Source: Dermatophagoides farinae (taxonomy: Eukaryota > Arthropoda > Arachnida > Sarcoptiformes > Pyroglyphidae). Taken from it: 64,000 nt of DNA. A program made the translations under genes and the position numbers. Positions 37,988 through 64,000 of the stretch are shown piece by piece. The stretch is from positions 4,715,001-4,779,000 of the forward strand of contig NC_134677.1 of the NCBI RefSeq assembly GCF_024713945.1, given 5' to 3'. The notes beneath the pieces are model-generated. The model ran no database searches. It worked only from the letters and a program-made list of their open reading frames with translations, and was not told the DNA's origin. Each line of letters opens with the position of its first letter. Positions within the stretch are counted from its first letter, which is position 1.

Positions 37988-40940
37988 GTTCATCTTCAAC
38001 CAAATGAAAACAATGGCTGATGCAACCAACTATTTTATACAAAAGCAATAGCAAGCCATTGATCCATACACACACCAGATTCACATTATCTGTTTCATTT
38101 TGTATGACTCAACTTGAACTCAAAATAGTTGACAGAAAAAAAATTCACAAATTCAAATTGGATCCAGATTCGAAGTTTGACTGTAAACACAGTCGATCTG
38201 TCTGTCTGTCTCTTTCCCTATTTGTGTAAAGAATTGTATCTTCAGACCAACCTAACCATAGCCACCAACCGGTACGCACAAATCAAAAACGATACAACGT
38301 GGATACAATATGAATCCCTGAAATGAGCGCCACTGTTTCATGGAGCCACCACCACGATTACAACCACGACTACCAAACTTATACACAACCGCGCCCTAAC
38401 CTCGAATCAAATTCATCCATCCTATTTGTGTATGGTAGACGATTGTAATAAATTGCGGAAATCTAGGTTCTTTTAGGGTCACTAAATTCTTTGGATAGAT
38501 ATATAAAGATTTATGGGTTGAAGGATACCGTGTTAATATGACCATGATGAGATCGATTTAACAAATTTTTTATTTTATTTTAGATGGAATTTATAAAAAA
38601 ACCTATAATGTTGGAAATTGAATTGGAATTGACTCAACAAGATGTAAAATGAATAAATATGATTGTCAATGGCCCTATGACCTAATGATCATCGGGATTA
38701 TGAAAAACAGAACCCAATGGATCAATAATTCCATGAATTCCAATCTTAAACAGTAAAAGTGAAAATACGCTGTATATAAACCAATGTCTAATATTCAACA
38801 TGCTACTACGTTCGATAGAAGATCCACTATCACGTTGAATACCACTACGACCATAATATAACTTGCTACAGATGTGGACCTGATGCTGCTATGTTTATTT
38901 GAATGAGCAAGAAATTGTATCCGTGTGTGTGTGTGTCTATCTGAAGCTAAGCGCATAGATGGATTGTGTTGTGCTGCAGAATCTTAATTAGTTGGTGATT
39001 TTTATATTTTGGTTTGATATATCCATATCACATATTCCAAGCAAAACATTTAATGCAGCTTTTTTTCATGTTTGTGTAATGTTTGTTTGTTGTTTTGTTG
39101 TTGTTTTTGTTATTGATAATGTGATCCATAGGATCCGGAATAAAATTTTCTAAATAAAAACTTTCATCCTTTACAACATCTTTGTAATTAATATCGAACA
39201 TCATCATAATCATTATCGTCATCCATCTGACATTAGCCGATGATCAACAAACACTTGAGCCAAGAACAAAGATTTTTTAGCTGTTGGTGGCTCTTTATTT
39301 TTATTTACGGTAAGCCATGCAATGTTAAATGTGTTTATTATTATATACAGAGAAAAAAGTAAAATTCGGATAGTGTGCTTGTTGAAGAATCATAAATAGA
39401 ATCTTTTTCCTTAGACTCGAACACACACTCATTTGATCTAATTACTAATGAATTTGTAACGTTTATTTCGTATCGAAAATCTTTGTTGAATATATGATTT
39501 TTGTTTTCAATTGTCGATGACAATCAAAAATGGATCCGATTTCTGTAGGATCAATCTGAATTGGAAATTAGAATAAAATAATACCATTTTATCAGTCATT
39601 GTTGATTGTTGTGATGATGTTCTCGATTTTCATCATATCTTTTCAATTTTAAATTCGATTTCGATGTTTATTTATTCTCTTAATCCATTTGTCACATCAA
39701 TAACTTGTTCTCAAATTCACACATGCATAATTTGTTGAAATGAAATCATTTCCAATGATGATCTAAGAAAAAGATGAGCAGTTATCATTATCACATATAA
39801 AAACACACACGCACACTGAGATTTACTGAATTCAAAATTTGAATGAAGTTATGCCTCTTTTCTTCTGGTTTTCTCATCTTGTCGGTTTTTCAGGCGGTTG
39901 GCGTTTTGTTGCTCATTCCTCGCCCAATTTCAAAGTCCATCCACGGCATCGAACGATCAATTCAACCTTAAAAAACAGACAAACAAACAACCAGACAACC
40001 ATCATTGATGATGATCAACATCAATTATAAAAATAATAATAATCATATATATATCCATTTATTCAAAGACTGTTGCTGCTTACCAGCCATCCATCCCAAT
40101 CATTAATTCAAGTTTATATCAAAGATGAAGAAAAATGGGGTATCATGATGATGATGATCATTACAGTCGTTATGTCCTTTTGTCTATTTTTTTATGATTA
40201 TGATCATCATATTGATACATAATTGAATGGCGTATTCATAACAACAACAAACAACAGCAACAACAAAAAAATTGTCAACATCATTCTTTTGTCACATTCA
40301 TTCTCGGTCATTATGTTTTATTGTCGTCATATCAAGCTTATGATTCAATTATCATTTCGGTAAGACTTTTTATTTTTTTTTTAAAAATATAGATATTCAT
40401 GTTGTGAATCACCATGCTACAGTAAGGAAAAACTATAAAATTATTCTGCTGTTTTTTATTCGTTGATACTACCGGTTGTGAAATTGTCACCGTCATTTAT
40501 TTTTTCATTTTTAAACTTTTAATTGTTAGCAATGTTTGTCCTCATCGACATTCATTCTCTATATGATTGATCATTTTTTATCGTATAAACTATATCGTGT
40601 TTACACATACACACATGTCCCTTATTTTACGGTTAAGAAACATCTGATTTGCTATTTTTGTATGACTGATGATGATCATAATGAAAATCAATAGGAAAAA
40701 AAATCTACCAACTATTTTCATTGTTTGGTCGTCCGTGAATGGTTGGTCGAAATAATGAATTAAAAGTAGTTAATGTCACATCATTTATAAATTGGGTCCT
40801 TTTGTCATCAGATCTATTTTTATATTGATGGATTCATTCACCCATTCACAAGTGAAGATTTCTTATTGTTATGAATAAAGTGAATTCATTCCGAATTCAC
40901 AACTTGTTGCTTTTCAAGCATTTTAGTCAATGAAATTGAA

Positions 40941-41013
40941 GAGAGAGAGAGAGAGAGAGAGAGAGAGAGAGAGAGAGAGAGAGAGAGAGAGAGAGAGAGA
41001 GAGAGAGAGAGAG
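40941..41013. repeat. (GA)n microsatellite
   Basis: About 73 bp of uninterrupted GA. The matching (CT)n in the right arm (60581-60676) is about 22 bp longer. Confidence 0.95.
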
Positions 41014-61503: not shown

Positions 61504-61871
61504 TTTATGAGTAATCTATGATAATCAATGTAAATCGATATAGATTGACAACTCAACTGAAGTGATCAAATTATCTTCTATTTGTTCTCTGACTAACATA
61601 AAGATACTATAACGATAACAGAATCCTCTTCATTATAATCAATCGGCAAATATGGGAAAAAATGGGCCACAGTACAAACATTTGCGATTAACACCATAGT
61701 AAAGACTAGATTATCAACATAAAGAGAAAGAGAGAGAGCGAAAGCAAGTATCAATTTGACATAGAAAATATATAATTTCTTGACGGTTCAATTCAATGCT
61801 ATGATTTTGTGTGTATCCTGGAATGAATTATGTATATTTATTATCATTGTTGATTGAATATATGAAAAAAA
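61504..61871. other. 368-bp segment present only in the right arm
   Basis: The left arm is continuous across this point (near 40110), where TTCAAG meets TTTATATCAAAG. The extra segment has no open frame, no obvious terminal repeats and no target duplication beyond an AAA at the joint, so it may be a deletion from the left arm rather than an insertion. Confidence 0.85.
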
Positions 61872-64000
61872 CTTGAATTAATGATTGGGATGGATGGCTG
61901 GTAAGCAGCAACAGTCTTTGAATAAATGGATATATATATGATTATTATTATTTTTATAATTGATGTTGATCATCATCAATGATGGTTGTCTGGTTGTTTG
62001 TTTGTCTGTTTTTTAAGGTTGAATTGATCGTTCGATGCCGTGGATGGACTTTGAAATTGGGCGAGGAATGAGCAACAAAACGCCAACCGCCTGAAAAACC
62101 TACAAGATGAGCAAACCAGAAGAAAAGAGGCATAACTTCATTCAAATTTTGAATTCAGTAAATCTCAGTGTGCGTGTGTGTTTTTATATGTGATAATGAT
62201 AACTGCTCATCTTTTTCTTAGATCATCATTAGAAATGTTTTCATTTCAACAAATTATGCATGTGTGAATTTGAGAACAAGTTATTGATGTGACAAATGGA
62301 TTAAGAGAATAAATAAACATCGAAATCGAATTTAAAATTGAAAAGATATGATGAAAATCGAGAACATCATCACAACAATCAACAATGATTGATAAAATGG
62401 TATTATTTTATTCTAATTTCCAATTCAGATTGATCCTACAGAAATCGGATCCATTTTTGATTGTCATCGACAATTGAAAACAAAAATCATATATTCAACA
62501 AAGATTTTCGATACGAAATAAACGTTACACATTCAATAGTAATTAGATCAAATGAATGTGTGTGTGTTCGAGTCTAAGGAAAAAGATTCTATTTATGATT
62601 CTTCAACAAGCACACTATCCGAATTTTACTTTTTTCTCTGTATATAATAATAAACACATTTAACATTGCATGGCTTACCGTAAATAAAAATAAAGAGCCA
62701 CCAACAGCTAAAAAATCTTTGTTCTTGGCTCAAGTGTTTGTTGATCATCGGCTAATGTCAGATGGATGACGATAATGATTATGATGATGTTCGATATTAA
62801 TTACAAAGATGTTGTAAAGGATGAAAGTTTTTATTTAGAAAATTTTATTCCGGATCCTATGGATCACATTATCAATAACAAAAACAACAACAAAACAACA
62901 AACAAACATTACACAAACATGAAAAAAAACTGCATTAAATGTTTTGCTTGGAATATGTGATATGGATATATCAAACCAAAATATAAAAATCACCAACTAA
63001 TTAAGATTCTGCAGCACAACACAATCCATCTATGCGCTTAGCTTCAGATAGACACACACACACACGGATACAATTTCTTGCTCATTCAAATAAACATAGC
63101 AGCATCAGGTCCACATCTGTAGCAAGTTATATTATGGTCGTAGTGGTATTCAACGTGATAGTGGATCTTCTATCGAACGTAGTAGCATGTTGAATATTAG
63201 ACATTGGTTTATATACAGTGTATTTTCACTTTTACTGTTTAAGATTGGAATTCATGGAATTATTGATCCATTGGGTTCTGTTTTTCATAATCCCGATGAT
63301 CATTAGGTCATAGGGCCATTGACAATCATATTTATTCATTTTACATCTTGTTGAGTCAATTCCAATTCAATTTCCAACATTATAGGTTTTTTTATAAATT
63401 CCATCTAAAATAAAATAAAAAATTTGTTAAATCGATCTCATCATGGTCATATTAACACGGTATCCTTCAACCCATAAATCTTTATATATCTATCCAAAGA
63501 ATTTAGTGACCCTAAAAGAACCTAGATTTCCGCAATTTATTACAATCGTCTACCATACACAAATAGGATGGATGAATTTGATTCGAGGTTAGGGCGCGGT
63601 TGTGTATAAGTTTGGTAGTCGTGGTTGTAATCGTGGTGGTGGCTCCATGAAACAGTGGCGCTCATTTCAGGGATTCATATTGTATCCACGTTGTATCGTT
63701 TTTGATTTGTGCGTACCGGTTGGTGGCTATGGTTAGGTTGGTCTGAAGATACAATTCTTTACACAAATAGGGAAAGAGACAGACAGACAGATCGACTGTG
63801 TTTACAGTCAAACTTCGAATCTGGATCCAATTTGAATTTGTGAATTTTTTTTCTGTCAACTATTTTGAGTTCAAGTTGAGTCATACAAAATGAAACAGAT
63901 AATGTGAATCTGGTGTGTGTATGGATCAATGGCTTGCTATTGCTTTTGTATAAAATAGTTGGTTGCATCAGCCATTGTTTTCATTTGGTTGAAGATGAAC

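What the first reader, a model, noticed from the sequence alone, without database searches (positions are those of the whole stretch)
37988..64000. Giant, nearly identical inverted duplication with ~11.2-kb spacer, splitting adducin
At least 7.26 kb at 37988-45250 is repeated in reverse at 56417-64000, including intergenic DNA that should drift quickly. One arm leads into the full adducin gene; the other stops in intron 3. Either a very recent inverted segmental duplication or an alternative haplotype joined in the wrong orientation would give this picture. A real palindrome of this kind could drive gene conversion, hairpin formation and copy-number change.
Basis: seen in the sequence. Interest (0 to 1): 0.85.

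Follow-up and report, generated by a model that had tools for sequence, protein, structure and literature searches.

The report
Recent inverted duplication beside adducin gene
A 9-kilobase stretch of a small animal genome was recently copied, flipped and pasted about 11 kb away, apparently into the remains of an old tRNA gene; it is an ordinary kind of duplication with unusually readable break points.

Summary
The inverted repeat is real in the assembly and longer than reported: left arm 36296-45250 (8,955 bp), right arm 56417-65727 (9,311 bp, 1.7 kb past the window), spacer 11,166 bp, no Ns in the surrounding 200 kb. Ten substitutions separate the arms over 36880-45250, nine of them within 1.1 kb; adducin exons 1-3 are identical.

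Each arm carries a tRNA-Trp gene with an intron, the only two complete copies that pattern searches found. The spacer ends in a 50-bp piece, 80% identical, of tRNA-Trp 5' flank plus its first 10 bases, joined bluntly to inverted adducin intron 3. DNA just beyond the right arm resembles more of a decayed tRNA-Trp (3 of 1,500 random windows score as high). The left arm's outer end lies exactly at a 65-bp transposon remnant.

Best reading: a copy of the left arm, one end made at a transposon, was joined without homology into a broken tRNA-Trp relic between a helicase gene and SLBP. The left arm is the source; the right holds an adducin fragment. A misjoin is unlikely but not excluded without reads; a staggered-break inversion is the main biological rival. 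Known kind of event.

The parts
36296..45250 (+). left arm (8,955 bp), read as the source: tRNA-Trp at its outer end, upstream DNA, adducin exons 1-3
56417..64000 (-). right arm, inverted copy; continues beyond the window to coordinate 65727 (9,311 bp in all), including a second tRNA-Trp at 65291-65393
45251..56416 (.). single-copy spacer (11,166 bp): rest of adducin, an MTR4-like fragment, a HELQ/POLQ-like helicase gene, dispersed repeats
   Evidence: the HELQ/POLQ name is recalled, Pfam shows Helicase_C and HTH_61
36597..36699 (-). tRNA-Trp(CCA) gene with a 27-nt intron in the left arm; the right-arm copy is identical over this stretch
   Evidence: ARAGORN with introns was run on the right copy only
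56367..56416 (+). relic of tRNA-Trp 5' flank plus tRNA bases 1-10, 40 of 50 identical to the intact locus; ends at the inner junction
55995..56367 (.). dispersed repeat pieces at the end of the spacer; the best copies (C2, C3) cease to match at or before 56367, where the tRNA relic begins
36229..36293 (.). 65-bp remnant of a short TIR transposon (CAG...CTG) with TA on both sides (36227-36228, 36294-36295); arm homology starts at the next base
43793..45153 (+). adducin exons 1-3 (complete N-terminal domain) in the left arm; identical copy on the minus strand at 56514-57874
35266..36183 (-). gene left of the left arm: ubiquitin-conjugating-like (AKTIP/FTS-like, name recalled; Pfam UQ_con below cut-off)
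32826..34997 (-). COG4 gene

Best explanation
A very recent inverted segmental duplication. Shown: two near-identical inverted arms; one inner junction that is continuous adducin intron (left) and one that joins intron 3 bluntly to a 50-bp tRNA-Trp 5' relic (right); an outer left end exactly at a transposon remnant. Inferred: before the event the order was COG4 - AKTIP-like - tRNA-Trp - adducin - helicase - old tRNA-Trp relic - SLBP. A break inside the relic (about tRNA bases 11-22 are missing) received an inverted copy of 36296-45250 taken from the sister chromatid or homologue; one end of that copy came from a break at a transposon end, the other from a break in adducin intron 3 next to a poly-T tract. 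Both junctions have 0-1 bp of shared sequence, so end joining (or microhomology-poor template switching) closed them. The right arm is therefore the daughter: it adds a second intact tRNA-Trp gene and a promoter plus head-domain fragment of adducin pointing toward the helicase gene. The few differences are clustered, as patchy exchange between arms or haplotypes would leave them.
For: Arms and limits. Relic at the inner junction: 21 of 22 identical at the core, 40 of 50 in register; the upstream part alone 22 of 38, P 0.00013 against all windows of the 200 kb. Right outer flank resembles tRNA from about base 23 on: anchored score 25, reached by 1 of 600 and 3 of 1,500 random windows; the left outer flank scores at most 12. 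So the relic's two parts lie on the two sides of the right arm, which fixes polarity. Complete tRNA-Trp found only in the arms. Transposon at the left outer limit: 39 other places match its terminus (47 rows less own row and 7 adjacent pieces; 40 of 74 candidates scored, so a lower bound); 2 of 8 fetched copies are short elements with the same start, CAG...CTG ends and TA on both sides in unlike flanks. Flanks single copy.
Against: No outgroup genome or reads were available. The right-flank test was framed after seeing an alignment; a longer unguided local alignment of that flank to the tRNA region was reached by 16 of 300 shuffles. An ungapped match holds upstream of the relic core, but a gapped local alignment of that upstream region gave nothing (26, reached by 186 of 300 shuffles). 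The outermost 170 bp of the arms differ far more than the rest, which a single clean copy does not explain without later change in that small tandem repeat. No microhomology was found for a replication-based switch.
Confidence: 0.58

Rival explanations
1. Staggered-break inversion: adducin and the spacer once lay the other way round, next to SLBP; an inversion with widely staggered breaks at one end left a duplicate of the arm at each end.
For: It needs the same number of new junctions. Inverted duplications at inversion ends are well described in Drosophila (passages of PMC7584159) and herring (passages of PMC11499932).
Against: It predicts the tRNA relic to continue into the left outer flank, which scores like background (at most 12; 9 is reached by 664 and 13 by 221 of 1,500 windows), while the right flank scores 25. 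The TA on both sides of the transposon remnant fits an insertion into an already existing AKTIP-arm junction, though weakly.
Confidence: 0.17
2. Assembly artefact: an alternative haplotype or chimeric read placed in inverted orientation.
For: Differences between arms (10 substitutions, large indels) are of a size that haplotypes could show; read support is unknown.
Against: No Ns in 200 kb; no second copy of either flank or of the full-length spacer end; the inner junction has no overlap that an assembler could use; junctions fall at a tRNA relic and at a transposon end.
Confidence: 0.13
3. Replication-based template switching (fork stalled at the tRNA relic, copying 9 kb of the nearby locus in reverse, then returning), or a secondary product of an ODIRA-type inverted triplication.
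For: In yeast, segmental duplications with breakpoints in or next to tRNA genes are ascribed to broken forks and template switching (passages of PMC2518615). ODIRA authors argue that many inverted copy-number variants derive from triplications (passages of PMC10766186).
Against: Junctions show 0-1 bp of shared sequence; only two copies, and no short inverted repeat at a closed palindromic junction.
Confidence: 0.12

Closest known systems
Interspersed inverted segmental duplication
   Same: long (9 kb), near-identical, intrachromosomal, inverted, a nearby single-copy spacer
   Different: break points can be assigned to a tRNA relic, a transposon end and an intron
tRNA-associated segmental duplications in yeast (PMC2518615, passages seen)
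   Same: a break point lies in a tRNA-derived sequence
   Different: yeast cases seen in the passages are not inverted and use 5-10 bp microhomology or LTR homology; here 0-1 bp
Inverted duplications at inversion breakpoints, Drosophila and herring (PMC7584159, PMC11499932, passages seen)
   Same: inverted copies flanking a single-copy stretch, kilobases long
   Different: here the spacer seems to keep its original orientation
ODIRA inverted amplification (PMC10766186, PMC11790251, passages seen)
   Same: inverted copy number gain
   [quoted passage not shown] not seen here

Membership tests
segmental duplication | at least 1 kb and at least 90% identity, not a high-copy repeat (definition recalled) | tested here: met
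   9 kb, 98% with gaps; the 1-kb probe from the arm found the two arms plus one 40-bp hit on C2
segmental duplication | supported by reads or depth | not testable with these tools
   no reads held
staggered-break inversion | spacer inverted relative to an outgroup | tested here: inconclusive
   no outgroup; relic continuity speaks against it
ODIRA product | inverted triplication, junctions at short inverted repeats | tested here: not met
   two copies only, spacer 11 kb, no inverted-repeat junction
nuclear tRNA-Trp gene | cloverleaf with CCA anticodon | tested here: met
   (with introns allowed); the default scans found none because of the intron
TA-inserting TIR transposon (Tc1/mariner/pogo-like, name recalled) | inverted termini and TA target repeats | tested here: inconclusive
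   the remnant has CAG...CTG ends and TA repeats; full-length relatives with both termini in 2 of 8 fetched copies, the remnant keeps only one terminus; no transposase looked for
haplotig misjoin | half depth over arms, no spanning reads | not testable with these tools
   no reads held

The most novel reading that the evidence does not exclude
Three marked break points in one event (transposon end, tRNA-Trp relic, intron beside poly-T) record a transposon-excision break whose end was captured at a broken tRNA relic, doubling what seems to be the genome's single tRNA-Trp gene and leaving a promoter-driven, head-only adducin fragment antisense to the helicase gene.
Probability: 0.3. Interest if true: 0.5.

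Novelty: new member of a known kind. Interest (0 to 1): 0.35.

Why it matters
Inverted duplications with a spacer can flip the spacer and convert each other, and how they arise in compact animal genomes is rarely readable. Here the event seems young enough that both junctions and the target site can be read, so that tRNA relics and transposon ends can be tested as sources of duplication breaks. It would also have doubled a tRNA-Trp gene that pattern searches found nowhere else intact.

Tried and rejected
Default ARAGORN scans found no tRNA; allowing introns did. The Rfam tRNA search scored 63 of 2,453 candidates and did not list either of our copies, so it cannot count tRNA-Trp genes. A first comparison of the relic with the tRNA flank was out of register and showed nothing; one search corrected it. 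One-sided strand invasion from a broken tRNA into the intact one was considered: it would leave a seamless tRNA at the right junction and does not explain the unlike right flank. A templated filler was considered for the relic: 20% divergence is much for that. The 368-bp stretch found only in the right arm is unique in the genome, so it is more likely lost from the left arm than inserted. Identifying the species by cathepsin-like proteins was not conclusive: one protein matched Ixodes-type (name recalled) and mammalian cathepsins best, another matched plant proteases best with Der f 1 sixth; a mite-like arachnid is my inference only. Paper searches found no report of this locus, but the library holds open-licence papers only.

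Full report
Self-comparison of the window shows two inverted blocks with E = 0. Adding 60 kb to the left and 76 kb to the right from the same contig (G000:C1; the window is C1:4715001-4779000) shows the true limits: 36296-45250 and 56417-65727 in window coordinates, without Ns in 200 kb. The arms are 8,955 and 9,311 bp, the spacer 11,166 bp.

Differences are few and uneven. Over 36880-45250 there are 10 substitutions (0.12%), 9 of them in 38769-39883; of 100,000 random placements 1 was as clustered. There are four indels here: 4 bp, 368 bp (right arm only, unique in the genome), 22 bp of AG repeat, and 73 bp (left arm only). The outermost part, 36296-36879, has 18 substitutions and 4 small indels, nearly all in two short clusters within a small tandem of tRNA 3' pieces. 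The last 1,458 bp with adducin exons 1-3 are identical.

Gene content: COG4 and an AKTIP-like gene to the left; adducin starting in the left arm and running into the spacer; a helicase gene (Helicase_C, HTH_61) in the spacer; SLBP (SLBP_RNA_bind) 0.3 kb beyond the right arm. Exons 1-3 carry the whole Aldolase_II domain; in the right arm reading through the exon 3 donor gives a stop after two residues, and the first AATAAA on that strand is about 0.6 kb into the spacer. Whether the copy is transcribed is unknown.

Each arm has a tRNA-Trp(CCA) gene with a 27-nt intron. Pattern searches with up to 3 mismatches found the 5' half only in the two arms (2 of 2 hits) and the 3' half in four places: one in the left arm, two in the right arm, and a fragment on C5. 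The left arm has a further, degenerate 3' piece beyond that threshold.

The right inner junction is informative. The 50 bases before it match the intact locus's 5' flank and tRNA bases 1-10 in register, 40 of 50, with 21 of 22 at the core. Before that lie dispersed repeats whose copies on C2 and C3 cease to match at or before 56367, where the relic starts. After the junction comes adducin intron 3, inverted, with no shared bases. The DNA after the right arm begins with a stretch resembling tRNA from about base 23 onward: anchored score 25, reached by 1 of 600 and 3 of 1,500 random windows; the left outer flank scores at most 12. This test was framed after seeing the alignment, a longer unanchored alignment is weak (16 of 300 shuffles reach it), and a gapped alignment upstream of the relic core gives nothing (186 of 300). 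If accepted, the relic was split by the right arm, so the left arm is the source and the spacer keeps its old orientation.

The left outer limit is informative too. Base 36296 directly follows a 65-bp element with CAG...CTG ends and TA on both sides. Its start matches 39 other places, a lower bound. Of 8 copies fetched, 2 (L070, L071) are short elements with the same start, an inverted end and TA repeats within unlike flanks; 5 share longer upstream sequence with one another, and 1 is divergent. Ours looks like one terminus plus a few bases of the other, as incomplete repair after excision could leave; that is inference. The flanks beyond the arms are unrelated with or without the element.

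From this I infer insertion of an inverted copy into a broken tRNA-Trp relic, closed without homology, with one end of the copy made at a transposon. Rivals are a staggered-break inversion, an assembly misjoin and replication template switching; none can be excluded without reads or a relative. In yeast, tRNA genes are named as likely fork-stalling sites at segmental duplication break points (passages of PMC2518615), so the setting is not new in kind; the breakage-replication/fusion model was seen as abstract and outline only (PMC12807874).

An artefact is unlikely: each outer flank has one full-length place in the assembly, with only short repeat hits elsewhere for the left one, as has the spacer end, and the arm probe finds just the two arms and a 40-bp hit. 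The species is not known; a mite-like arachnid is a guess from weak protein matches.

Noticed in passing
window 51200-52076: 158-bp inverted repeats (79%) flank an ORF (51420-51839) with an MTR4-like stretch; relatives on C10 (72% over 47 aa) and C3 (40%). It may be a gene fragment caught in a transposon.
   Followed up: partly
window 50864-51117: Tandem direct repeats of about 83 bp, 88-92% alike.
   Followed up: no
C1:4814228-4814943 (L008): An imperfect palindrome of 716 bp, 87%.
   Followed up: no
L022 (C5:3293683): A tRNA-Trp 3' fragment whose end reads GGGTCACCA, as if copied from a mature tRNA with its CCA.
   Followed up: no
window 61504-61871: 368 bp only in the right arm and nowhere else in the genome; probably lost from the left arm.
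   Followed up: partly
G000:C6:4883586-4889723: A cluster of papain-like protease genes; one (L061) has Der f 1 among its best solved-structure matches.
   Followed up: no
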